This document shows, in pieces, positions 29,501 to 41,500 of a stretch of DNA of 64,000 bases. The notes beneath the pieces were generated by a model, which was not told the DNA's origin, made no database searches, and saw only the letters and a list, made by a program, of their open reading frames with translations. How positions within the stretch are numbered: position 1 is the first letter of the stretch; every line of letters begins with the position of its first letter. Source of the stretch: Marisa cornuarietis (Eukaryota; Mollusca; Gastropoda; Architaenioglossa; Ampullariidae); the NCBI GenBank assembly GCA_004794655.1, contig SMMW01000041.1, positions 434,001 to 498,000 on the forward strand. The letters are read 5' to 3'. Position numbers and translations under genes: made by a program.

Positions 29501-32500
29501 TCTGAAGGGTCTGAGAGGTGAGGCAAAATGGCTTCTATTTGAACATACCGTCATAGGACTGAATGTATTCTAAAAAATATATATATATATATAAAGGAGA
29601 GAAGAATAAACAGCACAAATGACACAAACATAAAGACAACTAAATTTTCAAACTTTATTTTCTTGCTTTTTTTTCCTTATTTTTCTCTGTATCTCTATAT
29701 CTTTTTTTACTCATAAGCAGGGATATCAGTATTTAACATTTTCAGTTCATTTCCTTGTGACCATCAGTTTAGAACAAAACCAGGTGGGGAGAAGGCTGTG
29801 GAGAAATGGCTTGTAGTCCCTGATTACATCTACGGTCAGAATGGCTAGGACTTCAGTTTTGCACCCATGGTTTTGTTTTGTAGTACTTATAATTCTATTT
29901 ATGTGTGCATTACAATAGCTGACCGAAGTTTTGAGTGTGACATACATGTACGTCAGTGTACGCTAGAATCTATGCTTTAGTATTTTTATTTTATTTCCTA
30001 GTTGTCATGTAAAATTTTGTTTCTTACACCCTGAATCTGGGAAATGTCTATAATGTTTCTTATTGGCATAGGTGAAGTACAGGTATGCAATCAAAATCAG
30101 TGGCTGTATGCACTGTCATATACATTGATATATAACAAAGCAAAATCACCACTATAACAATGGATGGAAACACAAAAATTAACACTGTTACTGATCCTAC
30201 AATTGATTCCACCAGATAACAAACATGTATAGTGAATAATACAAAAACGCTTTATAACATACGAGTGGGTAGTTTTAGACTGGAATGAACATGTCTATAG
30301 AGATGATAAATTTGTCAGTGTGGAGCTGTGCAGTTGGTTAAAACAGTTTCGATTTTGAAAGTGCAAACATTGATGGTAAATTATTTCCTCATTTATCAAC
30401 GATGATGTGATTTTGTTATTTAAATTTATTTCCAAATCTTCATCAGAACTACTGTCTGTTTCAGTTAATGTGTTTTCTTCATGCTCGGAATCAAATTTGC
30501 ACTGTTTAGTGGCACATCTCCAGATATCCTCTACTAGCTTAAAAGTTTTATTTTCTAAAGTGTGTTGTCCAAGTTGTCGCTAGTTGTGCTGTACACTTAT
30601 TTTGGTGTGATTTGAAGTAGAATCTCTATCAACATATTCATTCCAGTCTAAAACAGTAAGACCCATGTGCATGTGATATAGTGGCTCGTGTTTTTAATGT
30701 GGGCACACTTAAGCAGATAGCTCAGGCATACACTGTTAAAGCTTTCAACATAAAATGTGTCCCTTGATAGCACATAGTCCTCTAGCTTTTTATAACGTAC
30801 ATGGCCCTGCAGAAAGTTGCTGAGAAGCTTGACAGCAGCGGGAGCAGTTAGCACTATTAGAAATGGTATATCTTGTGATTGCCTGCATGGTGAGGCTTGG
30901 TTACACTTGTGATGGATGTTTTGGAAGTGTGTAATATTTCCATCCAACAAGTGCCTTAGGCTCACAGGGTCGCCGTCACAATTTTCAATACACCAGTAAA
31001 GATGATCCCTGACAGCTGCTGTCTTGTCAGTGAGCTGAGGGTGCCACGTCTTGCCGATGTTCGCTTTACTACCTTGCGCCAGTTGAATATTATTATCCCC
31101 AGTTACAAGTAAAGAGAGATATAGAGAAAGATAAACAAAAGCAATACAAATAAGATTTTAAAATTAAGTTGTAGCTGTGTCATTTCTGCTGTTCATCCTT
31201 CTCACTTTTATTTTTCTCTATATTTATTTTATAGAGAATAAATTCAGTTGTCGGTCCTCACCCTGACAGTATGTTCAGTTCAGACTGTTTCACATCAGCT
31301 TTCTCAATGCCAACAGTAAGTACTTGGGTGAGCAAGGCGTTCTATTGCTCGGGTAGCCAGCACCACTTGTGATCTCCACTCTGCCTTCTGTTGGGGTAGG
31401 AATTAGGGAAGACTAACCACATGTAAAAGTCTGTATCATGGGTACTCCTACCTTCCCTCGCCCGAGTGAAACCATTTTAAAACCCGCCCAGAAAAAGTTC
31501 TGCGTTTTAGACAGAAAAATCACCACTGTCAATGGCAGAAGATATGTCTGTGGTTACTTTGATGAGAGTAGTTTAGGTACTATTAAAGATCAGTCTATAT
31601 AGGACCTATTCCTGAAAGGTGTATACTTTTTATTTTATAAGGGGTGTTTTCAGAAATCTTATTTACACTAAAATAAAGTTAAAGCAGAATTATTGCAGTT
31701 ATTTTTAAACCCTTTTATGCATTATCTTCTTGCAGTTTATGGAACATTTAATGATATTTCTGCCACAGCATTCTACACAACCCAGGTTTGTGTGTCATGC
31801 ATATATTTTAATGTGATTTTATTTTGATAGATCTAAAATGTTTATACAAATGAATTGACCAATGGCTGCCTCTATAAATGATTTAATAACTAAATGTCTG
31901 GTATCAAGATTATGAAGAATTTCCAGTTATAACTTATGTCTTATTGGTTTTGTTGTTATTGTAAAGGACTAGTGTATTAATTGTATTGCAACATTGTGTA
32001 AAGTTATCTTTCTGTTGGTTATTGTATACGTTTTTACCTTTCATCTTTCTTGTAACTGTTACTAGCTTCAGACTTCCATTAAGTTAATGATTAACTGTTA
32101 TTTGTTGTCTGAAGTAATTATTCTCCCCTCCACTTTAGCTAGATTTGGACTTCTGGTCAGGATGGGACCGACAAACAATGGCTATTCACATTATTGATCA
32201 GGACCAGGCATCAAATAGCTCTATCATCCACTGGGTCTACAAATATCCTGTAAGTGTCATCTGGCTACATGGTATTTAAAGGTTCCCCTACTCTGCTCAC
32301 AGACTGAAGTATTTAAATTGTGTTGACAGCACTTAATTCTTTTACATCTAAGTTTTCAACAGCATTAAGTTGCTTGGGGAATTTCCATAGTGGAGTCTAC
32401 ATTGGAGAGCAGGATCAAGTGTACAAAGTTTGGTTGGATTGATAGCTGGAAAACAGCCTCTCTCTGCCTAGTAGTGAGTGGGTAGGTGGGTCTTTCATGG

Positions 32501-35500
32501 TAGAAGAGAAGGAACAATGTTGGGGCTATGATAACTTCCAGATACCAGCTCTAGACAGTGAACCTCTAAATGATACAATAAGCAGCAGAAGAATGATTAA
32601 GTTATTAATACCACCCATGGAAGCTATTTGTTGTACAAAGTAAAATAAATTTCAGACACAATTTTAACATATGGAAAAGTGTAAAAAAAAATTCGTTATA
32701 TTTATGTCCATTATTATATTTAAATTCTGCAGGGTTTTTTCCCAGTGCACATCATTATTATTATGTGTTATGAACATGTGTTACCACCCCTGAACGTCGA
32801 AGTAACGAGGTTGTCGCCCTTGATTGAATAGCGATTATCACCCCTGGTTTGAATGTTGATAGGGGGCGTTGTTTAGAAATTGGAAGGAGAAGCAGACGTG
32901 AGAGTCTGGGAGAAAGAGGAATTTGGTACAGAGGTTGGAATTAATAGTACTGTGTGGATTAATATTAACTGTGTGAAGAAATAGCAACTGTGTGGATAAA
33001 TAGTAACTGTGTGGATACATATTAACGGTGTAAAGAAATATTAACTGTATGGAGAAAGAGTAACTGTGTGGAGAAATATTAACTGTGTGGTTCCTCGATT
33101 TATTAATTTTCTCAACTGCTGTGTGATCTCTTGAGAAGATCGTAGAACTGTGTGGAGAAATATTATCTGTGTGGTTCCTCGATTTACTAATTTTCTCAAC
33201 TGCTGTGTGATCTCTTGAGAAGATCGTAGAACTGTGTGGATTTACCTACTGTGGAATTTTTATTGACTTGGTCATTTGTCTGCCGTTAGACTGTCGGAGT
33301 TATTTGGTGAATGTAGGCTGTCCGTATGATCAACGCCAGAGAGCAAGACTGAAAGAGGGGAACTGTTTGCCGTGTCGACCCTTTTCCCCCCCCCCAACAC
33401 AGAAGAAGAGAGAACTTGAAGGACTTTAATATAAACTGCTTGGATATATTTGTTTCGGTGCAAACTCAGTGTAGAATATTTGTGCTGAAGTTTTCTGTTG
33501 TTATTTAGTAAAGTATATATTTACGTTCACCCGATTAATAGAAACGTTCGAGCCCATGTGCAGGTCTTTGTATTTTGTTGTGTGAAAGGACACGTGAAGA
33601 AGGCTGTGAGGTCAGTGTTTGTTGTGTGTGACCTGTCCACACTTTCCGTGCGTTCTTGACATTGGTGACCCCGACGTGATCTGTCGAGGGTTTGTTTCGT
33701 TTGGTACAGAGTCGGGTGAAAGTGTGTCTTCGATTCAGTGTTTGTGATTCCCCTGGGACTTAGTGGTAGAAGGTTGGCAGTTAATTATTTATCTTTGAGA
33801 ATTTTGCAAAGCGGTTGTACTTATTTATATTTGCTCAGTGTTTAAGTGTTACATGTTGGGCGTGGTGCAGTTTCCCCGTCTCCAGCTTCACGGGTCTACG
33901 GGTGTGTAAAGTTCTACCCGTAGTAAGGAATTAGCCTCTGTTTCTACTTTGCCTCTCGTCTTTATTTTCCAAGCTCTCTATTCTGTGTGAAAGTGTATGC
34001 AGAAACCGAAAGTGAGAGTGGATGTTCTCTATCCTGTAGTTATCTGTCTTGTTTTATTTTTATAAAAAAAAATAATTCTGGGCCTTGCGTGTTCACTTAT
34101 TAATTTATGTGAAGTCATTGGATGTTTGAATAAGTTGTCGCCCTTGGATTATTTTGATGTACTCGTACGGTACTTTAGGATTGTTAATAGATCTAGAAAT
34201 CTGAGTGACTAGTTTTGAACAAGTTAAGACTGCTATTGATGTTATTTTGTAACCCAGTTGCATTTTTTGAAGATAATTTTTTTTGCCTGATTGATGTTGA
34301 CATGCCAGTAGCTTAGACTTATTGCAATTCTGGTTGTATTTTTTTGCCTTATTAGAAGCTTAGATAGTAGGGTGCTCCCTTTTTGTAAACACACTAGAGT
34401 AATTGTGTTGGATAGGTGTTAACCATGGCTGAATCCGTTAGGGAGGTAGCCGACTTTATGAAAGAAGGACAACTGTTGGGATTGAAAGAAGAAGCCCTTA
34501 CAAAGTATGTATTTCAGTGCATTGAAAGGCAGGACAGATATACAGAAAGATTAGCCAGAGAGAAAGAAGCAGAAAGATTAGCCAGAGAGAAAGAAGCAGA
34601 AAGATTAGCCAGAGAGAAAGAAGCAGAAAGATTAGCCAGAGAGAAAGAAGCAGAAAGATTAGCCAGAGAGAAAGAAGCAGAAAGATTAGACAAAGAGAGA
34701 GAAGCAGATAGATTAGAAAAAGAAGCTGACAGGATAGCTAAAGAAAAAGAAGCTGAAAGGGCCGCAAGAGAAAGAGAGGCCGAGCGTCAGTTCGAATTAG
34801 AGAAACTACGTTTAGAGAGAGAGACCGATTCCAGCGCGACGAGGAGTAATGGGAACCAAACCCCAAAAGGACTCACACATAAACTCCCCGCCTTCAAAGA
34901 GGACGAAGACGATATCAACGCATTTTTGAATCGATTTGAGGCTCAGGCGCAGTCCCTTAAATGGACCAGAGATATCTGGCCATTACAAATCGCCACTTCT
35001 TTTCACGGAGAAGCCCTCCAGCTATATGATAACCTATGTGTACAGGGCCCCGTGGATTATGATGTGCTCAAAAGAGAACTATTACTCAAGTTTCAGTGCA
35101 CCGCCGAAGGTTACAGAGAAAAATTTAGATCGGTGAAACCCCAATCTCAAGAGTCAATGCATTCTTTTCAAGCCAGACTAATCGGATTGTTCAACAGGTG
35201 GATCGACTTATCCAAAGTCCAAAAAACTTATGAAGGATTGCATGATCTGCTAGTCAGAGAACAAGTACTGCAAAGTGTATCTAGAGATTTAGCCGTATTT
35301 CTGAGAGAAAGAGATTTTCAGAACGCTAATGAAATGATTGACAGTGCTGAACGTTATCGCCAAGCACACCCCAGAAATCTCCGGCAAGACGAACAGAAAC
35401 TATCATGTTCGCAAATGTGGGACAAGCCACTCCTCCTTCTTCACCGCCAGCTCGCCCAAAGCAGGACAGACACCAATTTACTTCTCCTCGATCTTCAAGA

Positions 35501-38500
35501 CAACGAAATACTCCTCCCTACAGAAGGAATGAATCATGGAGGACTCCACCCCACTCCCCACCAATAAGAACAGTTCCGAAGGAAGCACCAACGACCATAT
35601 ATGATCGAAACAGCCCTTGTCATCCTGATCGTTGGAAACCACCACGACGTTGCTTCAACTGTGGAGGACTTGGACATATAGCCAAGGTTTGTCCAAGCTA
35701 TAGACCCCAAGATAACACAAATGGAAATTGGAAAAATGAGAGCAACCCAACCCCAGCCAATGTTGCTATTATGTGTTCAGTCACCGACGAGGAGGAATTG
35801 GGTAAACTACATCTGTATCCAGGACGGATTAGGGGACAGCAAGTTAAGGTGCTACGCGACTCAGGTGCAACCATCTCCGGTATACGAGCCTCCTTGGTTC
35901 AACCACAGGACCGACTGAACGGGAAACAATCTTGTATTACCTTTGGTGGAAAGGTTGAAACCTTCCCTCTAGCACGTGTTCCAGTAGAGACACCTTTCTT
36001 CAGTGGAGACCTGAAATGTTGTGTCATCGAAAATCCAGTTGTCGATCTAATCATTGGAAACGTGAGAGGTACAAAACGGGTGGTATTTGATGTACAAGAG
36101 AAAGAGTCAGAACCAACAGCAGCGGTTACCACACGCGCGCAATTCCAACGCCAGATGCAGGGACCTCAACCCATAACTCTACCACCAGTTCAATGGAATA
36201 TAAAGAAGAACAACCGAATGGAATTACAGCAAAGCGATTCCTCACTAGAGAACATAAAAGAAGATGCAGAAGGTCGTGAGTGTAGACTGCCGTTAGAGAT
36301 CAGGGACAAAGAAATTGCTCAACTCAAGGCCGAGATGGATGTTAACCAAAAGAAAAGAGATCGATTGGCTGTACTGTGCCAACAACAGAAGTCGACCATT
36401 GGTGAGTTGAAAGAAAAGATTCATGAATTGGAGTTGAGACGTAAGCATCAGTGTGATGACCTACTGAAAGCCTCAGCAGATATCAGAACCTTCAAGGAAC
36501 GAGAGGAAAGACTCAGGAAAGATCTTGATAATACTATCACAAGATTGAATTCTCTGGAAGGAAACACCGAGGCAGAAAGAACAGCTCATCTGGAAACGAA
36601 ATTCAACTCAGAAAGCTTAAAGCTTCGTGTTAGAGACCTGGAAGGATCTCTGGAAGTCGAGAAATTAAACAGTGTGGAGGCTAACCGAGCCGTGGAACGT
36701 TTGACAAAGCAAATGAGAGAATTCGAACAAAGACCTGGTGATAGGAGAGAAACTCAAAAGGAATATCTGGGATTGAAACGCCAGTTAGTAGAAGACATAG
36801 CAGAGAAGAAGATACTCATTGGCATCTTGTCAAAAGATCGTGAAATCCATCAGAAGAGTTTCACAGAACCCATAACAGGGCTGGGGACAGCCAAGAAAGA
36901 ACCGGTATTTGTAGAGGACTCCAATGTAACACTCTTCAAGGAGTTACAATACCTACTGCTGAGCTTCGAACTGGTAGGCAAGAACAAAAGGATGAAAATC
37001 ACGAGAGTTCGCAAGAAAAGAAAAACAGCAACACCATCTGCTCTTGAAAAAAAAACTTTAAACACACTTTGATCGCCTATCGTCGTGAACCGGATACCAC
37101 AGCAGAAGAGTTGTCTAAATCTATAAAGAAGTGCAAAAAAGTGAACAAGTAATCGATATATTCAAGGAAATGATTAAACCAGAAGACCTACTACATAAAC
37201 ATGCTAAAACAATACCCTCGACGTGCAGAAGTTCCATCAGCCCTCTTCACCTACAACATTGAGAACAGTTTCTTACCCGTCATATATGTGAGTAGAAAAT
37301 TACTGGATAGAGAGAAGAGATACAGCACAGTAGAAAGAGAGTGTTTAGCCATAGTATGGTCTGTTCTGAAGCTGTCTAGATATTTGTATGGGAGACAGTT
37401 TACCCTACATACTGATCACAAGCCCCTATCTTTCCTCACATCTAATCCTTATAAGAATGCCAGAGTGATGCGATGGGCTTTAGCCCTCCAGGAGTTTAAG
37501 TTTGATATTCAGCCGATTAAGGGGACCACTAATAAATTAGCCGATGCCTTATCAAGGGCTGAAATGGATCAAGAAATTCCATAGGGCTGTCAGATAATCT
37601 TTTCGTTAGAACGTAACAGTTATATTGTAGTTAGGCGAAAATGTGAACATTTTTTTTGTAGGAGGGGAGGAATGTTATGAACATGTGTTACCACCCCTGA
37701 ACGTCGAAGTAACGAGGTTGTCGCCCTTGATTGAATAGCGATTATCACCCCTGGTTTGAATGTTGATAGGGGGCGTTGTTTAGAAATTGGAAGGAGAAGC
37801 AGACGTGAGAGTCTGGGAGAAAGAGGAATTTGGTACAGAGGTTGGAATTAATAGTACTGTGTGGATTAATATTAACTGTGTGAAGAAATAGCAACTGTGT
37901 GGATAAATAGTAACTGTGTGGATACATATTAACGGTGTAAAGAAATATTAACTGTATTGAGAAAGAGTAACTGTGTGGAGAAATATTAACTGTGTGGTTC
38001 CTCGATTTATTAATTTTCTCAACTGCTGTGTGATCTCTTGAGAAGATCGTAGAACTGTGTGGAGAAATATTATCTGTGTGGTTCCTCGATTTACTAATTT
38101 TCTCAACTGCTGTGTGATCTCTTGAGAAGATCGTAGAACTGTGTGGATTTACCTACTGTGGAATTTTTATTGACTTGGTCATTTGTCTGCCGTTAGACTG
38201 TCGGAGTTATTTGGTGAATGTAGGCTGTCCGTATGATCAACGCCAGAGAGCAAGACTGAAAGAGGGGAACTGTTTGCCGTGTCGACCCTTTCCCCCCCCC
38301 AACACAGAAGAAGAGAGAACTTGAAGGACTTTAATATAAACTGCTTGGATATATTTGTTTCGGTGCAAACTCAGTGTAGAATATTTGTGCTGAAGTTTTC
38401 TGTTGTTATTTAGTAAAGTATATATTTACGTTCACCCGATTAATAGAAACGTTCGAGCCCATGTGCAGGTCTTTGTATTTTGTTGTGTGAAAGGACACGT

Positions 38501-41500
38501 GAAGAAGGCTGTGAGGTCAGTGTTTGTTGTGTGTGACCTGTCCACACTTTCCGTGCGTTCTTGACATTATGATACATATAAAACAAGATTTGTTTTAAAG
38601 ATATAAATGACACTTCCAAGTTACCAGCAGCCTCTGAGCTTTTGTTAGGTGTCATACTCAAATATTCAGTATTATGAAGTAGCCATCGTCTTAATTTAAA
38701 ACCTTTGTGTTCATTTATCGCTGCCATTTCTTTGAGAGAATACACTGGCTTAAATGAGGCTTTGATGACTTAGGCTAAAATAGTTTGATTCATAGTCTTT
38801 TTCTTTTTGTTTTCACACAAAGAAGATCCATTCTTTTAAAAGGCAGGTGCTTGTCATGATTCATAGTGGAGAAAGCTTTTAACCATTTTTTTTTTAAACA
38901 GCATTGTACTAGCAAAAGAGCCCCAGAAGGTATTTCAAATTTTTTTATTGTACTACAGCTTATAATTTTTTTTTCCAGTATCCCATGTACCCAAGAGACT
39001 ATGTCTTTGTCAGAAGGCATAAGGTAAGTGATTGTAAAGATAATTATATATCCCAGAACTGACATTATTTCCCTTACCTTTTTTTTTTTTTTTTTTTTTT
39101 GCCAAATAGTCTGTTGCCTTGGATATAACCTAACAGTAAAACAAATCTGCTTACACAAGCAGGCATCAAAATTATGGACAAGTTTACTATTAAATGTATG
39201 AAAACACTAGAAGCAAAAGATTGGAAAAGTATTGTATTAAGTTGCTTTTTAAATTGCTCGTATGAGATCATTTTCTTTCTTTGCTAATTATTAATGGGTA
39301 TAATATTTTTCTTTCATTGGTAGCCATCATTGTCCTTGGTGTTGTGTTTTATTTTTAGCTGTATTTAGAGACATGTTCCATTCAGTTAAACTGTTTTGTG
39401 ATACTCTCCTTCAGGTCTGTCAGAAATCCAAGAAAATGGTGATTTATGCAAAAGCAGTTGATCATCCCAGATGTCCTGAGTCGGGTTTATATGTACGGAT
39501 TCAGCAGTACCAGTCAAAGATGGTCATAGAGCCACACACCACATTTGATGAGGTGAGTATTTTGCTGAAATTAACATTGGAAAGCATCCACTAATGTCTC
39601 AGGCCTAACAAAGATGCTTTTGTTTAAAAATGAAAAATAGTTCTTGTAAACATATTAAAATGTGGGAGTAAAAAGAAAGGCTTCCAGAAAATGTGACATT
39701 GATTTTGATTTTTCCATAGAGAAATAGGACATTTTTGAGTGACATGGCTGTAGACTTGATTCAGCAAGACTGGAAGAAAAGTGCCAAAAATATATATATA
39801 TACCTACAACAGAGTTTTATAGTGGACAGCTTTATATTGTATGCAAGAACAGATGGCATTAATAAAATGTGTCCTATGCATTTAGTATGTTGTATTAAGT
39901 CAACATCACATTCTGATCTAAAAAAAAATGCATGGCTAAGGTTGGCTTTTAAACATTTTCAGAATGGCTTTGACTACTGCCTTACATACTTTGATGATCC
40001 TCAGACACATTTTCCCAGTCTTTGTTATAACTGGCTGGCAAGCACAGGTAAGTTAAACAATCCATGTCCATTTATAAAGATGCAGAAGCCATGGTGTATA
40101 TTACCCTAGTGCTTTTTTTGTTGAAGAAAGCGAAGCATTTTAAAAATGACAGTTCATCATGAAAATGCTACTTTGTTTTTACAAACATGTTTGACTTTAC
40201 AGGTTAGCCATAATCTTTATGGGAAATACTTAGAATTATGGTTATGGCCACAAACATTATGAGATTTTTTTAATTTCCTTTCTTTTTCTTGGTGTCTTCA
40301 GTCTGTTTCTTGCTTTTTTTTCCAATTGATAACAAAGAAGTATGGAAAGTCCAAGAATTTACATACCTTGGCAGTCTAGTAACAATAGATGGCGATACAG
40401 AAAAGGATATGAAGAGCAGAGTCATCAAAGCCAATCAAGCCTTTGCCATCCTAAGAGAAATTTGGAAGGCCAAAGCTCTAAAGAGGAATGCAATATTCAG
40501 AATCTTTAGAAACAATGTCCATTCAGTCTTACTCTGTGGAAGTGAGTGCTGGAAGATATCAGCAAAAAGCAGGCAGAAACTAGCGACCTTTTAAACCAAA
40601 CGTCTGAGGAAGATCTTCAAGATATTCTGGGCTAACACAGTAATGAAGAACCAGAGGTACCACCCAAAATAGCCCTTCATTGGACTGATGGCAAGAGGAA
40701 GCGTAGTCGGCCAAAAAGAAGGTCCCTAACAGAACTCAAGAACCAGAAACTCTCCTGGAACAGCATGGCTAAACTTGCTGCTGTCAGAAAAAAAATGGAG
40801 ATCTCTAGTGGATGTCTTATGTGTACCACCTTAGGTACGAAGAGGACTAAGTATAGAGGATGAATGTACCTGGATACAGCGGAGCCGCTAGCTAACACAT
40901 GCTAACCTAAGCAGTAATTCACTTGGTTAGCGATCAGTTTTGACCCCTAAGTCAGGTCATCTGGTAAGTATCAAAGAAAGAGAATGTACAAGAAAACTTT
41001 GCCAAACATTTAAAAAGCCTAAAACATAGCATTGCTCTCTGGAAAGATTTAACATTTCAACTTCTTCTGGACAGTTTTATCCGGAGTACTGACAGCAGCA
41101 GCCCATTATTTCTTCATAGAACTGGCCATATGTACTTAAGTCATGATGGTAAAAATGTCGATAGAAGTGTATGAGTGATGCTCTAGCAAAATTGGTTATA
41201 AAGGCCTATTCTCATGCTGCAATATATCTCAGGTTTGCAGACCCTGCACGGAGCTTTTCAAGTTTTGCACACGGCTGCGAGGGGGCTTTGCATCAAGGTT
41301 TTCAAGGATAGGGCATGGTTCTGTTTTCTTGCAGAGCCTGACCTACATTACATGGCTGGGGCCAATCGGAATGCTTGAACACAGTTGGCTCCCTTTTACC
41401 TCCAAATTAGAAAATGGCGATGTGGTCAGAGGAAAGGTGTACGAGTATGATTTGTATGTAGGAAAACTACCTGTGTCTGTTCGACACATCCAATCCAGAG

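What the first reader, a model, noticed from the sequence alone, without database searches (positions are those of the whole stretch)
32766..38566. LTR retrotransposon whose integrase and RT are replaced by a coiled-coil coding segment
Gag, zinc knuckle, protease, RNase H tail, primer site, purine tract and LTRs are all present, but the integrase-RT block is missing. In its place is about 1 kb of in-frame, heptad-rich coiled coil fused to the protease ORF. RNase H beside the purine tract matches the Gmr1 gene order (PR-IN-RT-RH), which explains why only the far end of RH survives. It looks like host sequence captured by a Gypsy element, giving a trans-dependent lineage.
Basis: partly seen in the sequence, partly recalled or inferred. 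Interest (0 to 1): 0.88.

Follow-up and report, generated by a model that had tools for sequence, protein, structure and literature searches.

The report
Snail retrotransposon carrying host CCDC171 fragment
A jumping element whose chimeric form occurs at well over a hundred places in a genome close to that of apple snails carries, where most of its integrase and its reverse transcriptase should be, an intron-free piece of the animal gene CCDC171 that was likely picked up once from a messenger RNA and has since likely passed between element families, so these copies would need full-length relatives to move.

Summary
The element at 32766-38566 has near-identical LTRs, a TTATG duplication, Gag, zinc knuckle, a weak protease match and the end of RNase H. 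The roughly 0.93 kb coil is a fragment of the host gene CCDC171. It is intron-free across 10 exon junctions of the intron-bearing gene in the same genome. It is no chimera of assembly: the left junction word is at 153 places, and 100 listed places of each junction word are exact. Full-length partners with the same LTRs and order PR-IN-RT-RH exist; the five compared lack the coil.

The capture is older than this element. Other LTR families here and Gag-coil proteins of Pomacea canaliculata carry the same fragment, with one shared 11-residue deletion and, in six sequences, the same mid-exon start. Nine element coils form one clade beside apple-snail CCDC171. Between families the coil is far less diverged than Gag or RT, so it moved between backbones. 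Past purifying selection is supported (dN/dS 0.34-0.65, bound below 1 in 12 of 14 pairs); among recent copies none is detectable.

The proposed role, a Gag-coil fusion steering RNA to centrosomal assembly sites, is inference.

The parts
32761..32765 (.). target-site duplication TTATG, left
   Evidence: same five bases at 38567-38571
32766..33661 (+). 5' LTR, TG...CA
33663..33680 (+). primer-binding-site-like stretch TGGTGACCCCGACGTGAT; tRNA not identified
   Evidence: by eye; the same first bases follow the 5' LTR of family C copy L042
34425..35567 (+). Gag frame with SCAN-type domain and an array of 27-nt repeats; frame broken against the zinc knuckle-protease frame in this copy
35648..35698 (+). 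zinc knuckle (CCHC)
   Evidence: residues 100-116 of the 573-aa frame
35819..36058 (+). protease-like region (weak Pfam match, DSG motif)
   Evidence: E 0.085-0.16, below cut-off
36195..36255 (+). diverged integrase N-terminal remnant left of the coil
   Evidence: 44 of 60 bases match L011 in 36200-36259 against 57-60 of 60 in the five blocks before
36256..37180 (+). CCDC171 fragment (coil), in frame with zinc knuckle-protease to 37072
   Evidence: ends approximate
37180..37278 (+). integrase C-terminal remnant, ending in the 13-nt word where RT was lost
37266..37584 (+). RNase H, front part missing
37660..37672 (+). purine tract AGGAGGGGAGGAA
   Evidence: by eye
37673..38566 (+). 3' LTR
38567..38571 (.). 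target-site duplication TTATG, right

Best explanation
This is a non-autonomous copy of a Gypsy element with the Gmr1 gene order whose protease frame runs into an intron-free fragment of the host gene CCDC171, which was likely captured once from spliced mRNA by template switching and later likely passed between element families; it would depend on full-length relatives for integrase and reverse transcriptase. Shown: CCDC171 identity; no introns; both junctions at many places; coil-free long copies with near-identical LTRs; one clade of element coils with a shared deletion in two snail genomes; much lower coil than Gag or RT divergence between families. Inferred: (1) a CCDC171 mRNA was co-packaged and copied into an old element that kept RT and RNase H; (2) the module moved to other Gag/LTR backbones by recombination, and this subtype lost RT between two 13-nt repeats; (3) long copies with the same LTRs supply the missing enzymes; (4) the coil was kept because a Gag-coil fusion helps the element's RNA into particles, most likely by steering Gag to the centrosome. 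Confidence is for capture, single origin and transfer; step 4 alone I put at about 0.3.
For: Coil search: 27 proteins at E<=0.01, all with PF28256, best Pomacea CCDC171-like 60% over 93%. Host CCDC171 at C44 with introns; 13 exons splice GT-AG into an open 465-residue frame. Window fragment aligns to spliced positions 227-1218 at 74.0%, a range holding 10 of the 12 mapped exon junctions, one of them inside the shared 33-nt deletion. Left junction word 153 places and coil/integrase-tail word 160 places at up to 3 mismatches; the 100 listed of each are exact; reversed controls 0. Of 16 distinct places read, 16 keep the left and 15 the right junction. Long partner L011: H2C2, rve, RVT_1, RNase H in that order. 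Shared 11-residue deletion in A, B, C, L040, P0001, P0002, P0022, P0030 and not in the three host rows shown or L052. Nine element coils one clade, 96/93. Coil dS between A and B/C 0.47-0.51 against synonymous saturation in Gag (pS 0.80) and RT-RNase H (pS 0.90). Element-element coil dN/dS 0.34-0.65, upper bound below 1 in 12 of 14 pairs. Human CCDC171 confirmed at the centrosome (PMC7618310, passages).
Against: Among 15 other A copies the coil variants are 10 nonsynonymous to 3 synonymous, which fits neutrality. Two of 14 dN/dS pairs (A against the short L039 row) do not exclude 1. No expression, protein or mobilisation data. The tree cannot settle whether elements are nearer the G000 or the Pomacea host gene (86/83, not starred). 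Horizontal transfer of elements between snails is not excluded. Family B, C and older copies were read in nine loci only. Centrosomal location is known to me only for whole human CCDC171, not for this fragment.
Confidence: 0.78

Rival explanations
1. The coil is a mere passenger: a captured stretch kept as spacer, riding on LTRs that helpers recognise, with no role for the protein.
For: Recent A copies show 10 nonsynonymous to 3 synonymous coil variants, no deficit. The Gag frame is broken in the window copy and in four of six other coil copies read whole, yet such copies are abundant.
Against: Between families dN/dS is 0.34-0.65 with the bound below 1 in 12 of 14 pairs. Gag-zinc knuckle-coil stays open in one frame in the families B and C copies, while protease and other pol parts were lost. 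In one search only 2 of the listed rows have a stop inside the matched stretch (list cut).
Confidence: 0.45
2. CCDC171 was captured independently several times, for example once in the Pomacea line and once or more here.
For: The left partner of the coil differs: protease in P0022, zinc knuckle in B and C, integrase remnant in A. Pomacea and G000 element coils are deeply split.
Against: Same mid-exon start in B, C, L039, L040, L052 and P0022, the same 11-residue deletion, and one clade at 96/93.
Confidence: 0.07
3. The coil is an ordinary domain of an autonomous family, and the window copy is a decayed member.
For: L052 and possibly C322, C32 and C441 combine coil with RT.
Against: The 5 long copies compared have no coil. 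L052 has no match to the integrase part of the partner's frame. No coil copy read here has a complete integrase.
Confidence: 0.05
4. Assembly chimera.
For: No reads were available to test junctions.
Against: Both junction words recur on dozens of contigs, and Pomacea annotation holds a similar fusion.
Confidence: 0.01

Closest known systems
Gmr1 clade of Gypsy/Ty3 elements
   Same: Integrase lies upstream of RT in the long partner; PMC6238403 gives this as the clade's mark (one passage).
   Different: The window form has lost most of integrase and RT and carries a host gene fragment. RT phylogeny was not tested.
Bs1 of maize
   Same: LTR element that took up pieces of host genes and amplified; PMC13317346 (passages) reports three captured genes.
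   Different: Animal host; one coiled-coil gene; many more copies; the module is found on several element backbones and in two species. Bs1 copy number is recalled as low.
Transforming retroviruses that carry oncogenes (recalled)
   Same: Intron-free host cDNA fused into Gag or pol and dependence on a helper.
   Different: No envelope seen here, germ-line element at high copy number, no signalling gene.
Bdelloid rotifer LTR elements with extra ORF3s
   Same: Unrelated retroelements share accessory modules (PMC5408684, abstract).
   Different: There the extra genes are separate ORF3s; here the host piece is fused behind Gag and stands where pol was, and its source gene is still in the genome.
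Crocodilian ERVs with gene capture
   Same: Animal retroelements reported to capture genes (PMC4299795, search listing only).
   Different: Details not read.

Membership tests
LTR retrotransposon | two near-identical TG...CA LTRs with a short target-site duplication | tested here: met
   99.7% LTRs, TTATG on both sides
LTR retrotransposon | primer binding site and purine tract | tested here: inconclusive
   sequence by eye; matching tRNA not sought
Gypsy with Gmr1 order | integrase before RT in pol | tested here: met
   met in the long partner L011; the window copy keeps only integrase remnants and RNase H
Gmr1 clade | RT falls in the Gmr1 clade of a Gypsy tree | not tested
   no tree of RTs was built
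autonomous Gypsy element | complete integrase and RT | tested here: not met
   no integrase core or RT domain in the window copy
host-gene-capturing (Bs1-like) element | spliced, intron-free host gene fragment between the LTRs | tested here: met
host-gene-capturing (Bs1-like) element | capture by template switching during reverse transcription | tested here: inconclusive
   mid-exon start and short shared words fit; the event itself cannot be seen
trans-mobilised satellite | moved by a helper's proteins | not testable with these tools
   only inferred from shared LTRs and missing enzymes

The most novel reading that the evidence does not exclude
A Gag-CCDC171 fusion is the working protein of a satellite retrotransposon guild in apple snails: a stolen centrosomal coiled coil, with a basic tail made by a frame-shifting deletion, steers Gag and satellite RNA to where helper particles assemble, and this advantage spread the module across element families while protease, integrase and RT were thrown away in different ways.
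Probability: 0.27. Interest if true: 0.88.

Novelty: new variant of a known kind. Interest (0 to 1): 0.72.

Why it matters
Host-gene capture by LTR elements is best known to me from plants and transforming retroviruses. Here source gene, an old form, derived forms, coil-free partners and several receiving backbones can be read from one animal genome plus proteins of a second species. That makes it testable how retroelements trade captured modules and why a satellite element would keep a host coil while losing pol.

Tried and rejected
Rejected: assembly chimera, several independent captures, and the coil as an ordinary autonomous domain (see rivals). Led nowhere: solved structures searched with the coil gave 3 weak matches (best E 0.024); the Pfam copy here has no coil match above cut-off, so PF28256 comes only from precomputed annotation. 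At first I took L019 for an intermediate; its coil is followed by about 15 nt that fit the integrase tail before RT begins, so it more likely derives from a coil + integrase-tail form. The tRNA of the PBS was not sought. (STARD7) was beside the point. One search crashed after its coil part; redid Gag and RT. The sum printed is invalid because its search word was absent from L011.

Not settled: at C322, C32 and C441 the left coil word and an RT word lie 1855, 1853 and 1858 nt apart, against 1850 expected for coil + integrase tail + complete RT (990 + 860, by hand). Their DNA was not read.
Full report
Anatomy. The element lies at 32766-38566 between TTATG repeats. Its LTRs are 99.7% identical. 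It has a SCAN-type Gag, a zinc knuckle, a weakly scoring protease, the coil, and RNase H without its front. Integrase remnants flank the coil. The coil is predicted to be long helices (low pTM, so only the helix content is used).

What the coil is. A search with the coil alone found two short Pomacea canaliculata proteins, both with PF28256. A search with the coil part of copy L019's frame found 27 proteins at E<=0.01, all with PF28256 and many named CCDC171, from molluscs to cnidarians and vertebrates; the best is Pomacea CCDC171-like, 60% identical over 93%. The genome's own CCDC171 lies at C44. Thirteen exons with GT-AG borders splice into an open frame of 465 residues, 95.5% identical to Pomacea. 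The window fragment aligns to spliced positions 227-1218 at 74.0%; that range holds 10 of the 12 mapped exon junctions, one of them inside a 33-nt deletion. The fragment therefore descends from spliced mRNA.

Copies and partners. The coil query had 258 first-look candidates; the 40 scored, the window included, match over the whole query at 98-100%. The left junction word is at 153 places with up to 3 mismatches; the 100 listed are exact; the reversed control gives none. The coil/integrase-tail word is at 160 places with up to 3 mismatches and the 100 listed are exact; because the partner's own integrase tail differs at about 3 of these bases, only the exact ones are surely chimeric. In 18 fetched loci, which are 16 distinct places with the window, all keep the left junction and all but L019 the right one. 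The L019 junction, coil to RT, is exact at 9 of 38 places found; the other 29 (2 or 3 mismatches) are RT sites without it, and at least 6 of these (C32, C126, C188 twice, C322, C441) have a listed left coil junction 1.2-2.3 kb upstream. Five long copies, L009-L013, 6.41-6.54 kb from LTR start to LTR start, align to the window on both sides but not over the coil. In L011, Pfam finds SCAN, zinc knuckle and integrase H2C2 in one frame, then rve, RVT_1 and RNase H in the next. LTR pairs of 12 elements (window, 5 long, 6 coil-bearing) are 99.3-99.9% identical over the parts compared, so both kinds moved recently by that measure.

Older and other carriers. A Pomacea coil query found 17 places in this genome that score above the window family (129 of 290 candidates scored); nine loci holding ten of these were read. 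Families B (L036-L038) and C (L041-L044) run from zinc knuckle straight into CCDC171 with no protease between. The B copy tested keeps late RT and RNase H; the two C copies tested have no match to the partner's IN-RT-RH frame, and in L042 coil, purine tract and LTR follow each other, with AAGGG on both sides of the element. L039 and L040 are broken relatives. L052 is an old element: LTR pair 86% identical, Gag, a longer CCDC171 piece 90% identical in DNA to the host, then RT and RNase H with an interruption, and no integrase match. In Pomacea, P0022 matches Gag through protease of L011 (45%) and runs into CCDC171; P0030 has zinc knuckles and CCDC171.

One capture, then transfer. B, C, L039, L040, L052 and P0022 begin CCDC171 homology at the same EAT codon, inside a host exon. 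A, B, C, L040 and the four Pomacea element proteins share an 11-residue deletion that the host rows shown and L052 lack; in this genome A, B, C, L039 and L040 also share a 13-nt deletion that shifts the tail into a basic stretch. In a tree of 21 rows the 9 element coils are one clade (96/93), beside the two apple-snail genes (P0030 was not in it). Between A and B/C the coil dS is about 0.5, while Gag and late RT-RNase H are saturated at synonymous sites. The coil therefore changed backbones. B and C have almost the same Gag, so these are two clear Gag backbones; LTRs of B and C were not compared with each other. In the window copy the 60 bases left of the coil are themselves diverged from L011, as expected if a larger piece came in by recombination. 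The RT loss sits at a 13-nt word present twice in L011.

Selection. Over 14 element-element pairs (the near-identical A pair, ratio 1.08 on 5 changes, left out) dN/dS is 0.34-0.65; the bootstrap upper bound is under 1 in 12, and the two that fail are A against the short L039 row. Among 15 other A copies the coil has 10 nonsynonymous and 3 synonymous variants and no stop, which fits neutrality; zinc knuckle-protease has 14 and 12 (p 0.055). Past constraint is supported; present constraint is not.

How it most likely works. Long copies with the same LTRs would supply integrase and RT. The lasting product would be a Gag-coil fusion. Human CCDC171 was confirmed at the centrosome by microscopy with RNAi depletion (PMC7618310, passages). 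Mason-Pfizer monkey virus assembles capsids in the pericentriolar region (PMC3873405) and foamy virus capsids preassemble at the centrosome (PMC2887381; both from the starts of abstracts in the listing). Steering Gag to that site is the mechanism I favour, as inference only.

Novelty. Two papers of the library hold both CCDC171 and retrotransposon, on quail and sheep by title. Listings on gene capture showed plant, rotifer and crocodilian cases and none with this module by title or abstract start. If the genome is Marisa, which I cannot verify, its split from Pomacea at about 33.7 Ma (PMC13336756, passages) would be a lower bound for the capture under vertical descent; horizontal transfer is not excluded.

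Noticed in passing
window 32143-32250, 38979-39023, 39304-39591: The element seems to sit in an intron, in sense orientation, of a gene with a START-like exon (Pfam START E 0.0079, below cut-off; the other two exons by eye).
   Followed up: partly
coil ends: window about 36980-37030; L036, L041; P0001, P0030: A basic tail follows the frame-shifting 13-nt deletion (such as KITRVRKKRK, KIVRALKKR). It resembles a nuclear localisation signal; that is recalled and untested.
   Followed up: no
window 34543-34780: 27-nt repeats in the start of Gag encode a charged helix-like array (AEKERLAR type), with copy number varying between copies.
   Followed up: no
L052 5290-7034: About 1.7 kb interrupts the RT of the old coil element; its nature was not looked at.
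   Followed up: no
window 33062-33240 and 37969-38147: Each LTR holds an internal tandem duplication of 84 nt spacing.
   Followed up: no
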